Below are positions 10,438 through 22,567 of a DNA stretch of 45,332 nt, in pieces (within the stretch, counting starts at the first letter, position 1; each line of letters opens with the position of its first letter). The stretch is taken from NCBI RefSeq assembly GCF_002837275.1, contig NZ_NXIF01000052.1:1-45332 (forward strand), read 5' to 3'. This DNA comes from Malaciobacter halophilus. GTDB taxonomy: Bacteria > Campylobacterota > Campylobacteria > Campylobacterales > Arcobacteraceae. The notes beneath the pieces are model-generated. The model made no database searches, was not told the DNA's origin, and saw only the letters and a program-made list of their open reading frames with translations. Made by a program: the position numbers and the translations under genes.

Positions 10438-10467
10438 CATTTTATACATTATATGTTTTGGTTTAAA
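10438..10467 (-). repeat. Degenerate leader-distal CRISPR repeat
   Basis: The core ATACATTATATGTTTTGG is intact, but both ends have drifted: the plus-strand start reads CATTTT and the end reads GGTTTAAA. Loss of the tag sequence (ATTGAAAT on the transcribed strand) would impair the crRNA made from this end. Typical of the oldest end of an array. Confidence 0.85.
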
Positions 10468-12935
10468 GAAAACAAATACAGTTCTTGCTGATTCTATCCA
10501 AATTTCAATACATTATATGTTTTGGTTCAAGATTGTGTTTGAGGTGTGCAGTAATGCAAAAAAGCTTATTTCAATACATTATATGTTTTGGTTCAAGCTT
10601 TTGATTTGTAGTGATTTTTCATTTCATCTGAAATTTCAATACATTATATGTTTTGGTTCAAGCAAGTGATTATCAAATTGATGTAGAATTTATTGAATTT
10701 CAATACATTATATGTTTGGTTCAAGAATAAAATCAGCTATCCTTTTAGCACCATAAACAACATTTCAATACATTATATGTTTTGGTTCAAGATTCTAAAT
10801 AAACACTTCCAACCCTCAAACAAGTATTTCAATACATTATATGTTTTGGTTCAAGCAAAAGTTTATTGATGAATATAATTTAGACCCTAATTTCAATACA
10901 TTATATGTTTTGGTTCAAGCTTAAAACATCATTATAATGTTTTGCTTCAACATCATTTCAATACATTATATGTTTTGGTTCAAGGAATGATTTAAGATAT
11001 AAATGTAACTACTTTGCTTTATTTCAATACATTATATGTTTTGGTTCAAGTATATGCTTAATCGCAAATGTGTACTCCATTCGTATTTCAATACATTATA
11101 TGTTTTGGTTCAAGCAACTATTTTTGGTGTACCAGCTGCTATGTTAAAATTTCAATACATTATATGTTTTGGTTCAAGCGTAAATACTAATCTTCTAATA
11201 TTTTCTTCATACATTTCAATACATTATATGTTTTGGTTCAAGCTTCAAAAAAAGCAAATAATTTATAAAGGAATATTAATTTCAATACATTATATGTTTT
11301 GGTTCAAGGGTAATAGTGAAGTTGAGTTTGGAAAATATAAGGGATTTCAATACATTATATGTTTTGGTTCAAGGTGCGATGATTGGCTTCGCAGTTGTTA
11401 TCATAAGATTTCAATACATTATATGTTTTGGTTCAAGTAGGCTCAATTTGAGCCTATGGTTAAGCTCAATTATTTCAATACATTATATGTTTTGGTTCAA
11501 GATATTAGTGGTCTTAATTCAAAGATAACTTCTCTATTTCAATACATTATATGTTTTGGTTCAAGAAATCCCTCAAACACAAAGAGGAGTTAATCAGTTA
11601 GTATTTCAATACATTATATGTTTTGGTTCAAGTTTTTATCTACATCTTTAGATGCACTTTCTATAATATTTCAATACATTATATGTTTTGGTTCAAGTAC
11701 GAACATACATATTTAGGAATACCTAAAAAAGAATTTCAATACATTATATGTTTTGGTTCAAGTTTTGTTTATACTTTTCGTCATGTGCTGAAACCATATT
11801 TCAATACATTATATGTTTTGGTTCAAGTTAGGATAATTAATGATAGAATATGAAATAACAAGATTTCAATACATTATATGTTTTGGTTCAAGACTACTGG
11901 TGCAAGTTCTTCAATCTCTTTTGCAAGATTTCAATACATTATATGTTTTGGTTCAAGTAGATTTTAAAGAAAAATTAAAGGCTCTCTATTTAAAATTTCA
12001 ATACATTATATGTTTTGGTTCAAGAAAGTTCTATGTGCAAATGGTGCAAATGGTTATACATTTCAATACATTATATGTTTTGGTTCAAGGACGATTTATT
12101 GTTTAAAAAGTTATTGACTATTGAATTTCAATACATTATATGTTTTGGTTCAAGAGCAAAAAATGGAAACAGTTACAATATCAACTGAATTTCAATACAT
12201 TATATGTTTTGGTTCAAGAAAGCGTCTGTTTGTAAAGCGTCTTTAAATGCAAATTTCAATACATTATATGTTTTGGTTCAAGCAAACTCACCATCACCCT
12301 ACTCTTTAATTAAAGAATTTCAATACATTATATGTTTTGGTTCAAGTCAAAAAGCAGCAATTATTAAAATCACTGGAGATAAATTTCAATACATTATATG
12401 TTTTGGTTCAAGATTTTGTATTAACAGATTTTATACAAGAAATATTAAACATTTCAATACATTATATGTTTTGGTTCAAGTAGAATTAAATTTAAGTGAA
12501 TTCTGTAATAGATAATTTCAATACATTATATGTTTTGGTTCAAGATTTTTAAAAATTACCCTATCCCATCAATAGATAAATTTCAATACATTATATGTTT
12601 TGGTTCAAGTAGTTCTGCTTTAGGATCTGATCTAGCTATTACTGCATTTCAATACATTATATGTTTTGGTTCAAGAAAGTTCTCAAATTTTGAGATACAC
12701 CTAGTCAGGATTTCAATACATTATATGTTTTGGTTCAAGAAAGAAGAATTTCAGAAGATGAAATATTTAAAAGTTATTTCAATACATTATATGTTTTGGT
12801 TCAAGTTTGATATAGATCATACTAAGCAAAGCTTTTTAGGATTTCAATACATTATATGTTTTGGTTCAAGCATGTTTCTATATCTGCAATAAGATTTTTT
12901 TTCTGATTTCAATACATTATATGTTTTGGTTCAAG
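10438..12935 (-). CRISPR. Type I-B CRISPR array, 39 repeats and 38 spacers
   Basis: The repeat unit is 30 bp (plus strand starts ATTTCAAT, ends GGTTCAAG). By my count there are 37 identical copies, one 29-bp copy lacking a T (10697-10725) and one degenerate terminal copy (10438-10467). Spacers are 34-38 bp, all different. Transcription is on the minus strand: the reverse-complement repeat ends ATTGAAAT, the usual type I-B 8-nt crRNA tag, the cas genes share that strand, and the worn repeats are at the low-coordinate end, as expected for the old, leader-distal side. So the leader is at 12936-13099 and the newest spacer should be 12871-12905. No spacer was seen to match the rest of this window, but that was not searched exhaustively. 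Confidence 0.97.
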
Positions 12936-13099: not shown

Positions 13100-13426
<327 letters not shown>

Positions 13427-14431
13427 TTATATTTTCTCTTTTAAAATAAAAGGCTTAAACTCTTTATCTTCTACAATATATTTGATAAGTTTATATCCAT
13501 CTAATTTTATACAATTTTTATAACTTGTTTTTCTTTTTAATCTTTTATGCATAAAAGTTTCATTTATTCTAGTTTCAAAAGCATCAATAAAAATCTTTTT
13601 TCCTTCATCATTTAATAAAGCATAATTCAAACTTTTATCAAAATGCTTACTTACTTGAAGCTTTTTTTTCCCAACTAAATCAAATATAGTTTTAAAAACT
13701 ATTATTGGCTTAAAAGTTTCACTTATATCAAGACTTAGACTAAATCTTCCTTCTCTTGGAGAGTGTAAAAAACTAATTGTTTGATTTAGATGAGTTTCAT
13801 ATAAGCTTGAGATAGTTTTTGTATAAAGTAGTGTATTCCCAAAGCTTATAAGTGCATTGATAGGATTATTGGGTGGTCTTTTTACTCTTTTATTCATGAT
13901 AAAATCTTCAGGTAAAAAGTATTTAAAACTATCATAAAACCGCGACCACATTTGACCTTCTATAAAAAGTATTTGCTCAATTGTAAGCTCTTTTTCTAAA
14001 AATTTTTCAATATCATTTTTTAACCAATCAAGATAATTTTTAAGCTCTTTTTTCCCATGCCTAAAATAGTGATACAAAACTTCATGAATATTTGAAGCTA
14101 TAGATTTTACTATTTGTTTTGCAATAATCAATCTTTTTTCAATAAAGCATAAAGACTGTTTTATAGTCAAGTCTCCACTTACTAGTTGCTCTTTTGGATA
14201 AAAACTTCCGCTATAATTTCCATGATAATTAAAAAGATGTAAAGTTATCCCAGCTTTTGAAATAAAATCTAAAAACTTTGTATTGAAACTAACTTCATTC
14301 ATACAATAAAGCTCTCTTGTATCTTGTATGGGAATATAAAAATTACCTTTTTTATTTATAAAAGCAATAGAGTTATCTTTTCTTTTTAATTCACCCATTG
14401 AAAATATATATCTAGTATGATTTTTTGCCAT
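13427..14431 (-). CDS. cas1: Cas1, CRISPR integrase (type I-B)
   Basis: A 334-residue Cas1. The N-terminal beta domain is followed by the catalytic helical domain with metal ligands Glu158 (in FIEGQMWSRFYDSF), His223 (in FLHSPREGR) and the acidic LDISETFKP motif (Asp235, Glu238). NNPINALISFGNTLLYTK is also typical of I-B Cas1 proteins. It inserts new spacers next to the leader with Cas2, and Cas4 normally helps choose and trim prespacers. It starts 11 bp after the ATPase gene that separates it from cas4, so its expression probably depends on that gene's promoter or on read-through. Confidence 0.95.
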   Translation of the reverse strand: MAKNHTRYIFSMGELKRKDNSIAFINKKGNFYIPIQDTRELYCMNEVSFNTKFLDFISKAGITLHLFNYHGNYSGSFYPKEQLVSGDLTIKQSLCFIEKRLIIAKQIVKSIASNIHEVLYHYFRHGKKELKNYLDWLKNDIEKFLEKELTIEQILFIEGQMWSRFYDSFKYFLPEDFIMNKRVKRPPNNPINALISFGNTLLYTKTISSLYETHLNQTISFLHSPREGRFSLSLDISETFKPIIVFKTIFDLVGKKKLQVSKHFDKSLNYALLNDEGKKIFIDAFETRINETFMHKRLKRKTSYKNCIKLDGYKLIKYIVEDKEFKPFILKEKI

Positions 14432-14442
14432 AATATTTAAAC

Positions 14443-15696
14443 CTATTCAAAAATAAAGTTTTCAAAACTTAAAATCTTTATTTTTTCATTTTCTTCATTT
14501 GTATCATAAGTTATCAACTTTGCGTTACTACTAATATGAGAAAAATAATCAAAAACTCTTAACTCTCTTTGTCGTGTTTTTTTATCTTCGATATTATAAC
14601 AAACCTGATAAAGACACTTTTCATCATAAAAATCAACTTCATAGTTATCTTTCAGATATGTAAGTTCATCTGATTTTGAAGATAAATAGTTAAAAACAAA
14701 ATTTTCAAGTAATGCTCCAAGTTGTGGAGTTTTTTTAGTAGCTATTTGAAAGAAACCATTATCTTTCATATAAAGCTTTTTTATAGATTTGATTTTTTCT
14801 TTTGGCTTTGTATGATATTTATCAATTCTTTTAATCATAAAAGCCTCTTCAAAATATGATATGTACTCTTTTATAGTTTTATCACTAATATCAAATGTAT
14901 TAGCTAAGGTAGTATAATTTAATGGGTTTGTTGTATTATTTATAAGATAAAAAAACAGTTTTTCTATTGTTTGACTATTTCTTATATTATATCTAGGAAC
15001 AATATCTCTGTATATAATATTTCTAATATAACTTACTAATAATGACTTTTTTGCAAACTCATCTTTAATTTCAAAGACTTCATAAAAACCACCCCATTTT
15101 AAATATTCATCTTTAGCTCTTGCAATTTGAATTTTGTTATTTATTCGTTGTAATTTACTGCTATAATCTATTTGTTTATAAGATAGAAACTCTTTAAATG
15201 AAAAGGTATCAAGATGAATATTTAAACTTCTTCCTGTTAATAATGTAGCAAGTTCAGTAGAAAGCATTGAAGAGTTTGAACCAGTAATGATAAACTTAAT
15301 ATTACTAGATTCATACTTACTTTTTATATATACTTCCCAATTTTGAAAAAATTGAATTTCATCAAATACTACATAAGTTTTTCCATTAGGATTAGCAAGT
15401 TTTAAATACTCCTCATATATTTTTTCTAAAAATGTTGCATCATCTCTATATTCTAAAAAAAAAGGTTGCTCTAAATTAACAAATAGTATATTTAAAGGAT
15501 TGACTCCTTTATCAATCAAATAATTTATAGCAGTTTTTGCCAAAGTACTTTTACCACATCTTCTAATTCCAGTAATTGTAATTATTTGTTTTAAAGGAAG
15601 AAAATCAACTAATGTTTGAAATTTCTCTCTTATGATATAACTTTTCTTTTCACCAAACCAGTGTCTATTTTGTTCATTAAGTATTTTATCTATCAT
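14443..15696 (-). CDS. AAA ATPase with DUF4143 domain inserted between cas4 and cas1
   Basis: A 417-residue protein of the AAA_14/DUF4143 type. Walker A GIRRCGKST is at 43-51, Walker B TYVVFDE at 107-113 and TGSN (sensor) at 138-141, followed by the typical LTGRSLNIHLDTFSFKEFL. The middle section (about 200-290) contains winged-helix-like segments. The C-terminal DUF4143 part has the restriction-fold-like pattern GALLENFVFNYL, then EVDF and LYQVCY. The function of this family is unknown. It is not a standard cas gene. It lies on the cas strand, 84 bp after cas4 and 11 bp before cas1, and a promoter/dyad sits in the 84-bp gap. It could be a passenger, a defence or control gene, or an accessory to spacer acquisition. 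Confidence 0.88.
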   Translation of the reverse strand: MIDKILNEQNRHWFGEKKSYIIREKFQTLVDFLPLKQIITITGIRRCGKSTLAKTAINYLIDKGVNPLNILFVNLEQPFFLEYRDDATFLEKIYEEYLKLANPNGKTYVVFDEIQFFQNWEVYIKSKYESSNIKFIITGSNSSMLSTELATLLTGRSLNIHLDTFSFKEFLSYKQIDYSSKLQRINNKIQIARAKDEYLKWGGFYEVFEIKDEFAKKSLLVSYIRNIIYRDIVPRYNIRNSQTIEKLFFYLINNTTNPLNYTTLANTFDISDKTIKEYISYFEEAFMIKRIDKYHTKPKEKIKSIKKLYMKDNGFFQIATKKTPQLGALLENFVFNYLSSKSDELTYLKDNYEVDFYDEKCLYQVCYNIEDKKTRQRELRVFDYFSHISSNAKLITYDTNEENEKIKILSFENFIFE

Positions 15697-15726
15697 AATT
15701 CTTATTTTCCTTTAATTATTAAGAAG

Positions 15727-15763
15727 TATACTTACTAATATTATATCATAATTAGTAAGTATA
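15727..15763 (-). promoter_or_regulatory. Promoter with a 13-bp dyad operator before the ATPase-cas1-cas2 genes
   Basis: A perfect 13-bp inverted repeat (arms 15727-15739 and 15751-15763, core ATACTTACTAAT / ATTAGTAAGTAT, 11-bp centre). On the minus strand an extended -10, TGATATAAT, falls at its centre and edge (TATAAT at 15740-15745). The predicted start is about 30-40 bp before the ATPase ATG. There is no T-run after the dyad, so an operator is likelier than a terminator. A repressor bound here would block the -10. Confidence 0.65.
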
Positions 15764-15780: not shown

Positions 15781-16275
15781 TTATATAAAACAATACTCAT
15801 AATAAGCACATTTTTTACACTTTGACTCAAACTTTACTTGTGGTGGAGTATCTTGATTTATCAAAATTTCAATCTCTTCCAAAATCTTTAAAAGCTCTTT
15901 TTCTCTTAGCTCATCAAGTTCAATATAATGTATTTTTTTATCTTGTTTGTTTTTCTCGATAAACTCAATCTTTCCTTTTTTTATCACACCTTTTTGTTTT
16001 AGTTTATATAAATAAAGTAAAACTTGCCATTTTACAGACTCCACATCACTATCAGATTTTTTTACCTCAACCAAGTAATCCTTTGTAAGCTTGTCGATTT
16101 TTATATTTTCTATACTTACTTCAGATTTTTTAGATTTTGCTTCATTTATCTCATGTAAAATTTTTCCTATTCGAACATCTTCACTATTATCTTCTAAATT
16201 TATGCGGTTTGCATGAAGCCATAACTTTTTCTTACATATAAAATAATATGAAATTAGTGTTCCGTTTATATTCAT
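15781..16275 (-). CDS. cas4: Cas4, RecB-like nuclease of the adaptation module
   Basis: A 164-residue Cas4. Cys14 and the C-terminal trio Cys153, Cys156, Cys162 (CKKCAYYEYC) form the [4Fe-4S] ligands. His41 in GKILHE and the VEVKKSD and WQVLLYLY segments match the RecB-type exonuclease core. Cas4 trims prespacers and helps ensure PAM-correct integration. The gene starts directly after the cas3 stop (16276), so it is in the same operon. Unusually, it is separated from cas1 by an unrelated ATPase gene. Confidence 0.93.
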   Translation of the reverse strand: MNINGTLISYYFICKKKLWLHANRINLEDNSEDVRIGKILHEINEAKSKKSEVSIENIKIDKLTKDYLVEVKKSDSDVESVKWQVLLYLYKLKQKGVIKKGKIEFIEKNKQDKKIHYIELDELREKELLKILEEIEILINQDTPPQVKFESKCKKCAYYEYCFI

Positions 16276-18489
16276 TTATAATCCCAATTGGCATAATCCT
16301 TGATTCTCTTCGTCTTCATTTTTTATTCCCTCTTTATATTCATAGGGAATATTCAAAACTTTATAATTTGTTTCTTTTAGTGCTTGATACAAATACTTCG
16401 TTTCATAATAATAAGGCAAGAATATTGTATACTCATGATAATCTTTACTTTCAATATCATCATTTATAAAATCATCATAAAGTAAATAATCATTTTTAGG
16501 AATAGTTATGTCTCTTAGTTCATATTTGTCTTCTGATTGTTTTATTCCACAAAGTTTTTTTTGTATTTCATCATAAAATTTATATCCATCATTAAACTTT
16601 TCTAATTCATTTTGAGTTTTTATATCTTCTTTAAATAGTTCATCATAAACTATATTTAGCCACTCTACATATTTACTAAGTTTAAAATACCCATTTTCTA
16701 TAGTTTTAAAAGTAAGTTCCAAAAGATATTCAGAACTATAAGGAAATCTTTGTTCATATCTAAATATATATATTTCCCCTTTTTTAATTTCTACTTTTTT
16801 ACGATTTACTCTACCAAATCTTTGTATCAAAGCATCTATAGGAGCATTATCAGTAAACATAACATCAAAATCTATATCTAAAGATATTTCTACTATTTGT
16901 GTAGCTATTAGAATAAAAGGTTTATCTCCATCTAACTTTTCAAATATATCTTTCTCTTTTTGATTTTTATCTCGTTTTTTAAATGTAGAGTGATAAAGTA
17001 TCAAATCATTTTCATCTATTAAATAATCATCTCTTAATTTTTTATATGTATCAGTTGCACTTCTTACTGTATTTCGTATGATTAGTACATTTTTCTTTTC
17101 TTCAAACTTTTCAAGTATCAAATCAAAATTATCATCTAACTCTTCATCTATCTTAATAATCTCATTTGCTTTTTTTTCAAAAAGTTTTTCCTCTTTTATT
17201 AGTGGGTAATTTTCAATACCTAGCAACTTTTTGACTTCATTAGGTATGGAAGCACTCATAAGACAAACTTTCACATCAAATTCACAACATAGCTCTAAAA
17301 ACTTTTTTATAAAACCCATCAGTTTAAAATCATAACAATGAATCTCATCTATTATGACAATAGAGTTCAAATAGTTTTTAGTAGCAATATTAAATCTACC
17401 GATATTTATAAAAAACTTTAAAAGTGAATCTATAGTAGAAACAGTAACTGGCTTTGAAAAGTTTTTATTAAATGTTATCTCACTTTTAAAAAAATCATCT
17501 ACTACTCCATGTTCCTCTTCATATTCTTTTTCCAAATATAGCTTTGAAGAGGAATGAATAAGTCCACACTCTTTTTTATCAAAAAATATAGTTACTCTTT
17601 CGTATAGTTTATTTGAAGTTACTTGTGTAGGAAGAGTATATATTATCTTAGAGTTCTTATCATAAAGATTTTTTATAGCCCAAAGAAGTGAGCCTTCAGT
17701 TTTTCCTTCACCCGTTGGAATCTCTACTAAAATACTATTTTTACAGTTTGATAAATCTTTCTGAAAACCTCTTAATCTCTCAAAAGATAAATTAGATATA
17801 AAACTCTCTTTTGTAGGAATATTATTAAAATAAGTACTAGGTAAACTATTACTAAATCTTGCACTTGCTAACCAGTCTGCTAGATTTAATATACCGCTAC
17901 AGTATGTATATAATGTTCTTAATTTATGATTTTTATTTATATATTTTAAGTCACTATCCATACTATTTATTTCATTTGAAATATCATTTTCTATTTCAAA
18001 ATCAAATTTATATAAACACTCTTTTTTTAAGTATTTTTCATAAGCATTTTTATACCCATAAAAAAACACCTCTGCATCACTTAAAAACACATATCTCACT
18101 TTTTTCACATTATAAGGAAGTAAAGTGTGATGTGTTAAACAAAGTATCATCAAAAGATTTATATAACTATCATATTCTCCTCTTATGTCAAATTCATCAA
18201 ACATAGATAAAACACTTGCAGAATATAATGAGTGATAAGAGTTACTACCATTATTAATAGTATCCTGAAACTCCTTTGTAGCTTTACCTATATCATGAAA
18301 ATAGGCGCTAAAAAAAATCAAATCTAAGATTTTATCTTTATCCCAGCCACATATTTTAGATACTCTTTCAAGTGAACTTTCATCTACCAAATTAAGTGCT
18401 TCTTCTATTACCCAGCACGTATGTTCTTCTAAAGTTTGAGTAGATACAATTTCTCCATCTACTTGTAATTTTTTAGCTAAAATCTCCAC
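16276..18489 (-). CDS. cas3: Cas3, HD nuclease-helicase
   Basis: A 737-residue fused nuclease-helicase that degrades DNA marked by Cascade. The HD domain has His23, the HD pair at 65-66 (YFHDIGKA), His86 and the HH pair at 120-121. The helicase has Walker A IPTGEGKT (about 257-264), DEIH (381-384), SAS (412-414), IATQIVEISLDID and motif VI QRFGRVNR (556-563). All motifs are intact. It overlaps cas5 by one base (18489) and abuts cas4. The length is at the compact end for type I-B Cas3. Confidence 0.96.
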   Translation of the reverse strand: MEILAKKLQVDGEIVSTQTLEEHTCWVIEEALNLVDESSLERVSKICGWDKDKILDLIFFSAYFHDIGKATKEFQDTINNGSNSYHSLYSASVLSMFDEFDIRGEYDSYINLLMILCLTHHTLLPYNVKKVRYVFLSDAEVFFYGYKNAYEKYLKKECLYKFDFEIENDISNEINSMDSDLKYINKNHKLRTLYTYCSGILNLADWLASARFSNSLPSTYFNNIPTKESFISNLSFERLRGFQKDLSNCKNSILVEIPTGEGKTEGSLLWAIKNLYDKNSKIIYTLPTQVTSNKLYERVTIFFDKKECGLIHSSSKLYLEKEYEEEHGVVDDFFKSEITFNKNFSKPVTVSTIDSLLKFFINIGRFNIATKNYLNSIVIIDEIHCYDFKLMGFIKKFLELCCEFDVKVCLMSASIPNEVKKLLGIENYPLIKEEKLFEKKANEIIKIDEELDDNFDLILEKFEEKKNVLIIRNTVRSATDTYKKLRDDYLIDENDLILYHSTFKKRDKNQKEKDIFEKLDGDKPFILIATQIVEISLDIDFDVMFTDNAPIDALIQRFGRVNRKKVEIKKGEIYIFRYEQRFPYSSEYLLELTFKTIENGYFKLSKYVEWLNIVYDELFKEDIKTQNELEKFNDGYKFYDEIQKKLCGIKQSEDKYELRDITIPKNDYLLYDDFINDDIESKDYHEYTIFLPYYYETKYLYQALKETNYKVLNIPYEYKEGIKNEDEENQGLCQLGL

Positions 18490-19220
18490 TAGTAAAACAC
18501 CAATTTATTTTCAAGTTCATTATCTACAAAAGTCTTTACTTCATCTTGAAACTCTATTTCACAGTTTAAATATTCAACTTGATTAAACTCATAATCCTTT
18601 TTAGATTCTTTAGGGATTCTTTTATTTTTTTTATCAAAACCTATAAACTTTGTAGGTGTTATATTTAATATAGGGAACTCTATATTTTTGTGTAAATCTT
18701 TTACAAATGATTTATATTTTATCCCTTTATCTAAAAATACACTGTTTATTTTATTAGTATCATTTTTAGTTAGTTCTATCTGTTTTATATTCTTTATCTC
18801 TATAAGTTCATCATCCATACCTAAAGATGGAGTATTTTTAGGCTTATTTAGATTTTCAAGAATCTCATTATAAAACTCTTCATCTTCTATTTTTAAATAA
18901 ACTAAATAGCTTGGTAAAAATAGTTTATCCCTTCTCACTACAGAAAAGTCTTTTCTTTTCCCCTTTTCTAGTGGTTTTAGAGTTTTATATCTCCATAAAT
19001 CTTTAGCTTTCCCTTTTATCTCATTTATAACAATAGAGATTTCTATCAACTCTTTATCCAAAATCTCAAAAAACTCTTTTTGAGATTTTAAAGAGATATT
19101 ACAAAGCATACCTATTAAAGTAGTTTTAGGAGGTGCTAAAAAACTTTTATGATAAGTTCTAAAAAAAGGTATTCTATATGAGTTTACAAGTCCTTGTATC
19201 TCAAATCTTATAACTTTCAT
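18489..19220 (-). CDS. cas5: Cas5 (type I-B), Cascade subunit
   Basis: A 243-residue RAMP protein. The N-terminus MKVIRFEIQGLVNSYRIPFF, then TYHKSFLAPPKTTLIGMLCN, is the classic Cas5 signature. Cas5 caps the 5' tag of the crRNA (ATTGAAAT here) and contacts Cas8. It shares single bases with cas7 upstream (19220) and cas3 downstream (18489), indicating tight translational coupling. It looks most like the Cas5t (Tneap-type I-B) group; the subgroup is a judgement by eye. Confidence 0.92.
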   Translation of the reverse strand: MKVIRFEIQGLVNSYRIPFFRTYHKSFLAPPKTTLIGMLCNISLKSQKEFFEILDKELIEISIVINEIKGKAKDLWRYKTLKPLEKGKRKDFSVVRRDKLFLPSYLVYLKIEDEEFYNEILENLNKPKNTPSLGMDDELIEIKNIKQIELTKNDTNKINSVFLDKGIKYKSFVKDLHKNIEFPILNITPTKFIGFDKKNKRIPKESKKDYEFNQVEYLNCEIEFQDEVKTFVDNELENKLVFY

Positions 19221-20143
19221 TATTTACTCTTTAAAAGGTTTTTATACTCTTGTAGTGCTTTTGATACAGTTATAACATTTTCAAACTTTTCTTTTATCTC
19301 ATCTTCATTGTTAAATATCCCTTTTGATATACCAATTGTTAATTTTTCCACATCATTTTCTTCTATAGTTTCTAAAATGTTTTCAATGTTTATATTACCC
19401 TCACTGTCTACATCAAGACTATTTAATAAAAATGGGTTTCCAGTTTTTTGATGTGATATTACAATAAATTTAGGTGAAATATCTTCTAAATTTCTTGATT
19501 GTTTTGCTCCACCATTAAAGTTTTTAACAGCATCTAAAAATATATTTAATCTATGATTTTTTTCATCAACATTAAGTATTTCACTTACATCATATGTATA
19601 TTCATCTACTTCATTCCCTATATGAGAGATATTTACCATAATATTACCTCTCATAAAATTTAATGTATCAACTTCTATTTGTACTATATTTCCACTTTTT
19701 TCATTCTCTTTTTTAGGTTTTTGTTTTCTAGTAAGATAATCATATTCACCCTTATAAGGTAAAATTGAAATAAGTGGAGTAACTTTTATAGGAGACCATC
19801 TTCGACCACCACTTGGGAACATATATCCAAATAAATCCAGATCAACAAATTTTTTAAAAGCTTCTTCTTTTACATCTTTTAATTTCTTATCAAGATCAAT
19901 ATATTTACCATTCTCATCTCTAAATGTTGGTTCACCTTTCTCACTTACTTCTGTTATTCTTTCTCCTAATTGATGTAAAGTCTCTTTAAAATATCTTCTT
20001 AAGGCTTGTCCAGATACATAAGCAAACTCTTCACCATTTGCACTAGAGATTTTTTTCATTTCTGTTATATTTCCACCTGTTCCTTCACTACCATTTAATG
20101 ATGCTAAATTTACTTTTGTTATATATGCGATATTTAAAAACAT
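19220..20143 (-). CDS. cas7: Cas7 (Cst2/DevR-like), Cascade backbone
   Basis: A 307-residue RAMP protein that polymerises along the crRNA spacer. It begins with an RRM-like strand, MFLNIAYITKVNLASLNGSE, followed by GTGGNITEMKKISSANGEE and SGQALRRYFKETL, as in Cst2/DevR-type Cas7 proteins of subtype I-B. RNLEDISPKFIVIS is another family-typical segment. One base separates it from cas8. Length is normal. Confidence 0.92.
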   Translation of the reverse strand: MFLNIAYITKVNLASLNGSEGTGGNITEMKKISSANGEEFAYVSGQALRRYFKETLHQLGERITEVSEKGEPTFRDENGKYIDLDKKLKDVKEEAFKKFVDLDLFGYMFPSGGRRWSPIKVTPLISILPYKGEYDYLTRKQKPKKENEKSGNIVQIEVDTLNFMRGNIMVNISHIGNEVDEYTYDVSEILNVDEKNHRLNIFLDAVKNFNGGAKQSRNLEDISPKFIVISHQKTGNPFLLNSLDVDSEGNINIENILETIEENDVEKLTIGISKGIFNNEDEIKEKFENVITVSKALQEYKNLLKSK

Positions 20144-20144
20144 T

Positions 20145-21848
20145 TTATTTCCCTTCTTTTTTCATTTTATTTCTATAATTAGTAGCTTTGTATTTATCAA
20201 TTGCATAAATTGCAATATAATCCCTTACTATTTCCCATTCATTTTCTAGAACATTTAAAACTTCTTCTAAAGATTCATTAAACTCTTTTGAAAACCTAGC
20301 TTTTTCACCATGCTTTAAACTTGCAAACTTTAAGTCTTTAAAATATGATAATAATTGTTTATAATTTTTCACATTTCTAAGTTTAAAAAGTAAATCTTTA
20401 TCTCCTAATTGCGCACAAAAATACCCTATTGAATCTCCTAATATTTTTGATTTTTCATGAATATTCATATTTTTTTCTCCCATTATATTTTTTAAATAAA
20501 GTTTTTCGAACTCAAACAAGTTTTTTCCAAAAGACTTTGAATCATTTTTTAATATATTAAAACTTGCCAAGTAATAATATTTCCTAAGTTCTTTAAACTC
20601 CAACAATCCCTTACACCATTTTTGATAATTAACATTAACTTCTTTAGAACCTTGAGATTTATAAAAAATTACAAATATATCAGCAAAATAAGTAAATAAA
20701 TCAGCCTCTTTTATCTTCTCAAAGAATCTTATAAGTTGATATGCTTTTGTATATTCATTTAAAGATTTTTTGAAAGTTCCATCCTCAACATATGTTACAA
20801 ATGTAATCTCTTGAAGAGCATTATAAATTCTCTCTTTAAGTTTTTTCCTTTTTTTATTTGCTTTTTCATACTCCTCTTCTATATGATAAATTTTAGAAAA
20901 TAGATACATAAAAAACTTCAATTCAAACTCAACATCACTTTTTGAAATATAAAAGTACGTATTAAAAATCTCATCTTTTTTTAACTGCTCATAAAAATTG
21001 ATATTTGTATTAGGTTCAACTGTATTTCCAGAAGAGTCTTTAAAACTCTCTTTTTCATCACTTATTTGTAAATCATATTTAAAAATATCAAGTGCCTCTA
21101 AACTTGAAGAGTTTGGATAAATAAAAAATGAATAATTAAAATAATGCTGTACCTTAGTACCAAACCAATAAATTAAAGCTTCCCATTTATCAATATTATA
21201 CTCTTTAGATATCTTTAGCATATCATGAAAATTTTTTTGGCCATCTTCAAAATTATGGATAGAAGAGTTTAAAACTAAAAAATCATTTTTTACTAAATAA
21301 GATGAAAATCTTTCTATATGCTCATCTAAGGTTGATAATACATAAATTTCATTTTTTGATTTATCATAATAACACTTTTCAATTTTAAAATCATCTTTAT
21401 CATGATTATCATATTTTGATTTGTATAATTTCTCTTTTTGAAATAATTCTTTTTGAGATATTCCTAAATCATCTATATGAAATCTTATCAAAGAGTTTTT
21501 AGAATCATTATTACCACCATTTTTTATATTTATTTTATTTGTTTGAGTAAACTGTTTTTGTTTCATATCAAAAAATATTCTTTTATTTTTTTCATTAAAA
21601 CTAACTATCTTTTTATCTTTTAAAAACTTATTTAAAATCTCAAAATATATTTTTTCATCTTTATATTCTAATTCTAAATAATTACTTTGAAACTCAAACT
21701 CTATATCAAAACTATTATCTTGTAAAAACTGATATAAATTCACTATGCCATTATTAAAAAATACATCTTTTACAATAAATTTTTTAGAAATAGTTTCGCA
21801 AGAAGATTTTTCATCAAATAAACTATTTTGCACTAGTTCCATAAACAA
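20145..21848 (-). CDS. cas8b: Cas8 (type I-B large subunit)
   Basis: A 567-residue protein in the large-subunit position between cas6 and cas7. Sequence similarity is low, as is usual for Cas8, so the call rests mainly on position and size. The N-terminal half is mixed alpha/beta and lysine-rich. The last ~150 residues are helical (GDSIGYFCAQLGDKDLLFKL, and a DYIAIYAIDKY segment near the end) and resemble the C-terminal small-subunit-like bundle of Cas8b. Cas8 recognises the PAM and recruits Cas3. It overlaps cas6 by 16 nt; the second Met (residue 3) is an alternative start. No CXXC zinc finger was seen. Confidence 0.8.
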   Translation of the reverse strand: MFMELVQNSLFDEKSSCETISKKFIVKDVFFNNGIVNLYQFLQDNSFDIEFEFQSNYLELEYKDEKIYFEILNKFLKDKKIVSFNEKNKRIFFDMKQKQFTQTNKINIKNGGNNDSKNSLIRFHIDDLGISQKELFQKEKLYKSKYDNHDKDDFKIEKCYYDKSKNEIYVLSTLDEHIERFSSYLVKNDFLVLNSSIHNFEDGQKNFHDMLKISKEYNIDKWEALIYWFGTKVQHYFNYSFFIYPNSSSLEALDIFKYDLQISDEKESFKDSSGNTVEPNTNINFYEQLKKDEIFNTYFYISKSDVEFELKFFMYLFSKIYHIEEEYEKANKKRKKLKERIYNALQEITFVTYVEDGTFKKSLNEYTKAYQLIRFFEKIKEADLFTYFADIFVIFYKSQGSKEVNVNYQKWCKGLLEFKELRKYYYLASFNILKNDSKSFGKNLFEFEKLYLKNIMGEKNMNIHEKSKILGDSIGYFCAQLGDKDLLFKLRNVKNYKQLLSYFKDLKFASLKHGEKARFSKEFNESLEEVLNVLENEWEIVRDYIAIYAIDKYKATNYRNKMKKEGK

Positions 21849-22567
21849 AACCCTCCACCATAACTTTGACGTTCACCCAAGCCACAAGCAAGTGCTGTAA
21901 ATGCAAGTTTTTGACTTATTTCATCTTCATTAACTATTATCTTAAACTTATTTCCAAAAAGTCTTACTTTTTGCTCTTTTTTATCATTTATTTTTTTAGT
22001 AAAATAGATTGATTGAGGTTTTTGATTTTTGATTTCAAAAAGTTGTATAAAATTTTGTGTAGGTTCTAAATCTTTTTCATAAAATGATTTATATTTTTTT
22101 AGTAAGTTATTTTGTAGTTGTTTTTGCAAAATAAATATATCATCTTTTATACTCCAAAACATCTGTTTTTCTCCCTTTTGTCTTGGAAGTGATACTATTA
22201 CAGGAGTTACACTATAAAGTTCTGTTATAAAAAATTGCTTTACTATTTTTTTATTTGTTTCTACTATTTGTAAAAAATGATTATTTATATTTTCTTTAAG
22301 AAGAGTAGATAATGAATCTATAAATCTTTCATCAAGTGAGCGAAGTGTAAATTTATAAACTCTTCCTTTTTTATAGAGTTTATCTTTTTCAAGGGGATAA
22401 AACCCACCAAAACTATAATATTTATAACCTTTTTGCTGATGAAAATCTTTCAACTTATCATTTTTTAGCATACTAAAATTTATAAATTTTGAAATTACAT
22501 CAAAACTATTTATAAACTCTATGTCTACTTTAATAAATACTGTACATATCAATTCAAAGTATTTCAT
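21833..22567 (-). CDS. cas6: Cas6, crRNA-processing endoribonuclease
   Basis: A 244-residue RAMP endonuclease that cuts the repeat RNA to leave an 8-nt 5' tag. It starts with a hydrophobic strand, FELICTVFIKVDIEF, has His43 in a typical catalytic position (DFHQQKGYKYY), and ends with the glycine-rich loop ACGLGERQSYGGGF that defines the family. It is the first gene of the cas operon, with GGAG about 7 nt before its ATG and a -10 element about 50 bp upstream. Confidence 0.92.
   Translation of the reverse strand: MKYFELICTVFIKVDIEFINSFDVISKFINFSMLKNDKLKDFHQQKGYKYYSFGGFYPLEKDKLYKKGRVYKFTLRSLDERFIDSLSTLLKENINNHFLQIVETNKKIVKQFFITELYSVTPVIVSLPRQKGEKQMFWSIKDDIFILQKQLQNNLLKKYKSFYEKDLEPTQNFIQLFEIKNQKPQSIYFTKKINDKKEQKVRLFGNKFKIIVNEDEISQKLAFTALACGLGERQSYGGGFCLWN

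What the first reader, a model, noticed from the sequence alone, without database searches (positions are those of the whole stretch)
14443..15696. DUF4143-type ATPase gene wedged between cas4 and cas1
The adaptation genes cas4-cas1-cas2 are normally contiguous in type I-B. Here a non-cas ATPase (Walker A GIRRCGKST, Walker B TYVVFDE, DUF4143 end) sits between cas4 and cas1 on the same strand, 11 bp before cas1. The module is otherwise intact, so it was tolerated. It may be a regulator or accessory of spacer acquisition, or a passenger.
Basis: partly seen in the sequence, partly recalled or inferred. Interest (0 to 1): 0.7.

Follow-up and report, generated by a model that had tools for sequence, protein, structure and literature searches.

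The report
Defence-type ATPase embedded in CRISPR operon
A wandering ATPase gene that databases list as a candidate anti-phage gene sits inside a CRISPR operon next to cas4, a spot where related bacteria park many other guest defence genes; it is most likely a self-contained guest with its own promoter rather than part of the CRISPR machinery.

Summary
In detail: an intact 417-aa AAA_14-DUF4143 ATPase lies between cas4 and cas1, 11 bp before cas1. It is not an adaptation gene. It matches the PADLOC candidate family PDC-S01 (E 5.8e-105), named by others through "guilt by embedding". In 42 related I-B loci, cargo sits beside cas4 in 16 of 41 (BRO-N/PDC-S13, RhuM-Fic/PDC-S23, toxin-antitoxin pairs, this ATPase) and never between cas1 and cas2. 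The same ATPase recurs between cas3 and cas4 in two other I-B loci: G416 and the Arcobacter cloacae plasmid pACLO. The three CRISPR-borne ATPases form one clade (100/99), but their cas1 and cas4 do not (p 1.6e-50; 6.5e-5), so the ATPase moved between CRISPR loci independently and changed sides of cas4. Most relatives live elsewhere, some beside BREX, McrBC, GmrSD or cas12a. The gene carries its own promoter, with repeats spaced 33 bp around the -10 box that are conserved in non-CRISPR relatives. The C-terminal domain has the PD-(D/E)XK fold but lacks the usual lysine. Most likely it is an autonomous embedded defence cassette. Possibly new: a CRISPR-resident sublineage and the operator-like promoter, which could also feed cas1-cas2.

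The parts
14443..15696 (-). AAA_14-DUF4143 ATPase, 417 aa, PADLOC PDC-S01
   Evidence: ORF, Pfam, PADLOC E 5.8e-105
15184..15591 (-). AAA+ domain (AAA_14, residues 36-171): Walker A GIRRCGKST, Walker B YVVFDEIQ, sensor TGSN; key residues invariant in 40 homologs
14827..14934 (-). helical segment resembling a winged helix-turn-helix (residues about 255-290)
   Evidence: sequence pattern and predicted helices 261-268, 272-285; assignment is inference
14449..14721 (-). C-terminal PD-(D/E)XK-fold domain (residues 326-416); D355 and Q364 invariant, Lys position is S/C/A/T
   Evidence: AlphaFold2 model of the domain, matched to Can2/Card1/Cdn1/McrC and restriction enzymes; conservation
15718..15762 (-). 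promoter region of the ATPase: repeat 1 ATACTTACTAAT (15751-15762), -10 TATAAT (15740-15745), repeat 2 ATACTTCTTAAT (15718-15729); repeats 33 bp apart
15708..15713 (-). AAAGGA ribosome-binding site of the ATPase
   Evidence: sequence
15781..16275 (-). cas4
   Evidence: PF01930 E 1.1e-47
13427..14431 (-). cas1 (type I-B)
   Evidence: TIGR03641 E 2.1e-116
13100..13417 (-). cas2
   Evidence: PF09827
16276..18489 (-). cas3
   Evidence: TIGR01587, Cas3_HD
18489..22567 (-). cas5 (18489-19220), cas7 Cst2/DevR (19220-20143), cas8-position gene with no family hit (20145-21848), cas6 (21833-22567)
   Evidence: cas8 by position and similarity among loci
10438..12935 (.). CRISPR array, 39 repeats of about 30 nt, about 65 bp period

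Best explanation
The gene is an embedded, self-contained defence-type cassette of the PDC-S01 kind, not part of the CRISPR adaptation machinery. Shown: an ATPase of this family, with its own conserved promoter region, has settled beside cas4 in three I-B loci, moves between loci independently of cas genes, is under purifying selection, and shares this niche with other known or candidate anti-phage genes. Inferred: the AAA+ domain is an ATP-driven switch, a winged-helix-like segment and the PD-(D/E)XK-fold domain bind nucleic acid, the protein senses infection or foreign DNA and acts alone, and the operon is a permissive address where a second layer of immunity is kept and transferred together with CRISPR. 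Its promoter is probably autoregulated through the conserved repeats, and may also supply transcripts of cas1-cas2 downstream.
For: PADLOC PDC-S01 match E 5.8e-105. PDC-S01 was defined by embedding in immune systems and described as an ATPase fused to a PD-(D/E)XK member (PMC12988326). Cas4-flank cargo in 16 of 41 I-B loci, 0 of 40 at cas1|cas2. Other cargo at the same slots is PDC-S13, PDC-S23 and TA pairs, and Septu PtuAB, a DRT reverse transcriptase, PDC-S02 and PDC-S04 occur at other junctions. Two further I-B loci with the ATPase; a one-clade ATPase tree against rejected cas1/cas4 clades. Relatives beside BREX pglX/pglZ, McrBC, GmrSD, MutH-type RM and cas12a. The 33-bp spaced repeats around the -10 box: mean 9.5/13 matches at lag 33 against at most 7.9 at any other lag and 7.7 in shuffles, in 16 sequences from mixed contexts. 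dN/dS about 0.15. C-terminal domain fold.
Against: No anti-phage activity is shown here, and in the papers read none is reported for PDC-S01. Many relatives sit beside housekeeping genes, so the defence link is partial. The canonical catalytic lysine of PD-(D/E)XK is missing, so cleavage is doubtful. Autoregulation by the protein itself is untested. The CRISPR recurrence is one clade of three.
Confidence: 0.6

Rival explanations
1. Selfish or neutral passenger: the gene has no immune function for the host and uses the cas operon only as a harmless landing site, perhaps kept by addiction-like behaviour.
For: Cargo at the same slots includes toxin-antitoxin pairs; about two thirds of close relatives sit in ordinary gene neighbourhoods; PDC-S01 is extremely common and unproven.
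Against: Purifying selection with dN/dS about 0.15 and fully conserved motifs in 40 homologs; neighbours of relatives are enriched in defence families: 117 PADLOC models hit by 54 nearest neighbours against 11 by 52 farther genes.
Confidence: 0.22
2. Accessory or regulator of spacer acquisition, working with Cas4, Cas1 and Cas2.
For: Three I-B loci carry it next to cas4, as one clade across three genera with different effector modules; in two of them its stop overlaps the cas4 start; in the window it lies directly before cas1.
Against: 39 of 42 I-B loci lack it; closest cas1 and cas4 relatives lack it and the lineages do not co-vary; unrelated genes occupy the same slots; nearly all relatives occur away from cas genes.
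Confidence: 0.1
3. Mainly a regulatory insert: what matters is the promoter, which puts cas1-cas2 (or cas4-cas1-cas2) under a separate, inducible control.
For: Promoter with -10 box and 33-bp spaced repeats, and no terminator-like site on the minus strand between it and cas1.
Against: The same promoter is present in non-CRISPR relatives, so it belongs to the ATPase; other cargo at the slot lacks such spacers and abuts its neighbours.
Confidence: 0.08

Closest known systems
PDC-S01 (PADLOC phage defence candidate, single gene; Payne et al. 2024 preprint as cited in PMC12988326)
   Same: Same family by HMM (E 5.8e-105), same architecture of ATPase plus PD-(D/E)XK domain, same embedding in an immune operon.
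   Different: Here a CRISPR-resident sublineage moves between I-B loci and between two sides of cas4, with a conserved 33-bp-spaced promoter repeat; neither was described in the papers read (the preprint itself was not available).
AAA_14-DUF4143 ATPases (Pfam PF13173 + PF13635, COG1373-like)
   Same: Both domains over curated cut-offs.
   Different: Nothing distinguishes the protein itself; only its location is unusual.
Other embedded cargo in I-B operons: BRO-N (PDC-S13), RhuM-Fic (PDC-S23), PDC-S02, PDC-S04, Septu PtuAB, DRT
   Same: Co-directional insertion between cas genes without breaking them; BRO-N uses the same two slots and also changes side of cas4.
   Different: Unrelated protein families; no shared promoter seen.
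Type I RM operons with embedded defence genes (e.g. DarTG2 between hsdS and hsdR, PMC12255303)
   Same: A guest immune gene inside a host immune operon at a recombination-prone junction.
   Different: Host system is CRISPR-Cas type I-B; guest is a single ATPase gene.

Membership tests
PDC-S01 | full-length match to PADLOC PDC-S01 profile | tested here: met
   PDLC04787, residues 19-416 on 9-407 of 412, E 5.8e-105
PDC-S01 | found embedded in immune operons | tested here: met
   window, L003/G416, pACLO; homolog between pglX and pglZ in L116
PDC-S01 | protects against phage | not testable with these tools
   needs an assay; unproven in the literature read
AAA_14-DUF4143 ATPase | AAA_14 and DUF4143 over curated cut-offs | tested here: met
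   119.8 bits over 27 and 83.2 bits over 28.1
PD-(D/E)XK nuclease | core alpha-beta-beta-beta-alpha-beta fold | tested here: met
   domain model pLDDT 79; VIA Z 8.1 (rmsd 4.0, 120 aligned) to Cdn1, 7.9 Can2, 7.8 Card1, 6.5 McrC, almost all top rows PD-(D/E)XK
PD-(D/E)XK nuclease | catalytic D...(E/D/Q)xK triad | tested here: not met
   D355 and Q364 invariant, but the Lys position is S, C, A or T in all 40 homologs
Component of the I-B adaptation module | consistently present with cas4-cas1-cas2 | tested here: not met
   3 of 42 loci
Component of the I-B adaptation module | co-inherited with cas1/cas4 | tested here: not met
   ATPase one clade, cas1 and cas4 of the same loci rejected as clades
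Component of the I-B adaptation module | affects spacer acquisition or binds Cas1/Cas4 | not testable with these tools
   experiment needed

The most novel reading that the evidence does not exclude
The ATPase is a CRISPR-adapted immune cassette whose own autoregulated promoter, inserted beside cas4, makes expression of cas1-cas2 depend on the state of the ATPase, so that a second defence switches spacer acquisition on or off; the sublineage moves specifically from CRISPR locus to CRISPR locus.
Probability: 0.12. Interest if true: 0.65.

Novelty: new member of a known kind. Interest (0 to 1): 0.4.

Why it matters
Embedding of defence genes in other defence operons is already known, and PDC-S01 is among the most common unproven defence candidates. 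This locus gives a compact test case: a small CRISPR-resident lineage, a named plasmid in a cultured strain (Arcobacter cloacae LMG 26153 pACLO), empty-site relatives, and a conserved promoter motif that predicts autoregulation. It also shows that the flanks of cas4 are a preferred slot for guest genes in Campylobacterota I-B operons.

Tried and rejected
Viral contigs: the profile scan found no relative, and phage records give only hits of at most 33% identity, so phage carriage of this lineage is not seen. No solved structure by sequence. The whole-model fold search only returned AAA+/STAND ATPases such as Avs5, CED-4, RuvB and ORC with tied scores, so no specific partner is claimed. NCBIfam has no model for it. 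The 13-bp inverted repeat in the window's cas4-ATPase gap was first read as a hairpin or terminator; relatives show instead a direct repeat spaced 33 bp, and palindromes are only clear in the more distant clade (z 5.3) and weak in the window's clade (z about 2). Literature on DUF4143 with CRISPR: nothing relevant. The PADLOC neighbour count is a count of models, not of proteins, and is only indicative. The source preprint of the PDC names was not available in the library. Codon dS is near saturation.

Full report
OBSERVATION. The ORF 14443-15696 (-) is an intact 417-aa ATPase with AAA_14 and DUF4143 domains. It lies between cas4 and cas1, on their strand, with 84 bp to cas4 and 11 bp to cas1. 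The rest is a complete type I-B operon (cas6, a cas8-position gene, cas7 Cst2/DevR, cas5, cas3, cas4, cas1, cas2) and a 39-repeat array. In the nearest cas1 relatives, 90-91% identical, cas4 and cas1 are about 8-13 bp apart, so the gene is an insertion relative to them.

WHAT IT IS. PADLOC identifies the protein as PDC-S01 (E 5.8e-105, nearly full length). A 2026 survey describes PDC-S01 as an ATPase fused to a PD-(D/E)XK member, found by 'guilt by embedding', the fourth most common defence candidate, with validation pending for most such candidates (PMC12988326). In 40 homologs the Walker A, Walker B and sensor residues are conserved throughout. A model of the C-terminal domain alone has the alpha-beta-beta-beta-alpha-beta core and matches Can2, Card1, Cdn1, McrC and restriction enzymes. 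D355 and Q364 are invariant, but the usual lysine is replaced by S, C, A or T in all 40, so it may bind rather than cut DNA. A winged-helix-like segment lies between the two domains (inference from pattern).

THE SLOT. I compared 42 I-B loci found by cas1 similarity in Campylobacterota. Guest genes lie beside cas4 in 16 of the 41 loci where the site is visible: 11 of 39 at cas3|cas4 and 7 of 41 at cas4|cas1, with two loci counted in both. None of 40 lies at cas1|cas2. Guests at these slots are BRO-N genes (PDC-S13 by PADLOC in the one scanned, eight loci by similarity), RhuM-like genes (PDC-S23 in the one scanned, two loci), toxin-antitoxin pairs (PIN, GNAT, ParE-like), small unknowns, and the ATPase. 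Other junctions hold Septu PtuAB, a DRT reverse transcriptase, PDC-S02, PDC-S04 (Fic) and a SIR2 gene. The loci are not independent, since some share guests by descent. The pattern shows that these operons commonly host embedded defence-type genes and that the cas4 flanks are favoured.

RECURRENCE AND MOVEMENT. The ATPase itself is in three of the 42 loci: the window (cas4|cas1), L003 = G416 (cas3|cas4, together with an antitoxin/ParE-like pair), and G400 = Arcobacter cloacae plasmid pACLO (cas3|cas4, with BRO-N at cas4|cas1). In a 52-row tree these three form one clade (100/99), with the window and pACLO as sisters (100/98). The cas1 and cas4 of the same loci are firmly not one clade (AU p 1.6e-50 and 6.5e-5), and the six closest cas1 relatives of the window lack the ATPase. 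So the ATPase entered loci independently of the cas genes (or was lost many times with conflicting trees, which is less simple), and it stands on either side of cas4. BRO-N does the same: the cas4|cas1 copies of G209 and G400 are 88-89% identical to cas3|cas4 copies in other loci. Selection is purifying (dN/dS 0.12-0.19, dS near saturation).

RELATIVES ELSEWHERE. Most relatives at 48-67% identity are outside CRISPR loci. Several border defence genes: BREX pglX/pglZ (L116), McrBC (L008, L011, L110 by Pfam), GmrSD (L005), a MutH-type RM (L111) and a Cas12a gene with a short array (L101, divergent, 200 bp). Many others border housekeeping genes. Nearest neighbours hit 117 PADLOC models, against 11 for farther genes in the same stretches; this counts models and is only indicative.

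OWN PROMOTER. Upstream of the ATPase the window, pACLO and L003 share a -10 box flanked by two repeats (ATACTTCTTAAT type) spaced exactly 33 bp. Across 16 relatives of the clade, from CRISPR and non-CRISPR sites, self-similarity at lag 33 averages 9.5 of 13 against at most 7.9 at any other lag from 14 to 49 and at most 7.7 in 60 shuffles. A more distant clade has instead AGGAATACATTCCT just after the -10 box (palindrome score z 5.3). The one constant in these different contexts is the gene itself, which suggests autoregulation through its helix-turn-helix segment (inference). In the window this promoter points into cas1-cas2, and no terminator-like site was found on that strand.

CONCLUSION. 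Shown: a PDC-S01 gene embedded in a I-B operon, at a favoured guest slot, with recurrence, independent movement, its own promoter signature and purifying selection. Inferred: autonomous anti-phage action. The idea of an acquisition accessory is weakened, not excluded; a regulatory side effect on cas1-cas2 is open and testable. Kind: a new member of a known kind (embedded defence candidates).

Noticed in passing
L101:8800-12942: A Cas12a gene (PADLOC E 2.8e-287) with a 7-repeat array and no cas1, cas2 or cas4 seen nearby in a Campylobacterota genome (G060); an ATPase relative lies divergently 200 bp upstream and a toxin-antitoxin-like pair follows the array.
   Followed up: partly
L081:6103-7902: A DRT-type reverse transcriptase (RT_UG13a, E 3.5e-207) sits between cas5 and cas3 of a I-B operon that also carries PDC-S02 (DUF1016), a PIN/antitoxin pair and an unknown 179-aa gene.
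   Followed up: partly
L139:15208-17447: A Septu PtuA/PtuB pair sits between cas8 and cas7 of the pACLO I-B operon; a similar pair is in G203 (L087) and G044 (L096).
   Followed up: partly
L082:6278-8665: A 795-aa SIR2/STAND-like gene without PADLOC match lies between cas5 and cas3.
   Followed up: no
L080:2111-2923; L139:8385-9281: BRO-N (PDC-S13-like) genes switch sides of cas4: these two lie at cas4|cas1 but are 88-89% identical to copies at cas3|cas4 in other loci.
   Followed up: partly
window 20145-21848: The cas8-position gene has no Pfam or NCBIfam match although it is conserved among these loci.
   Followed up: no
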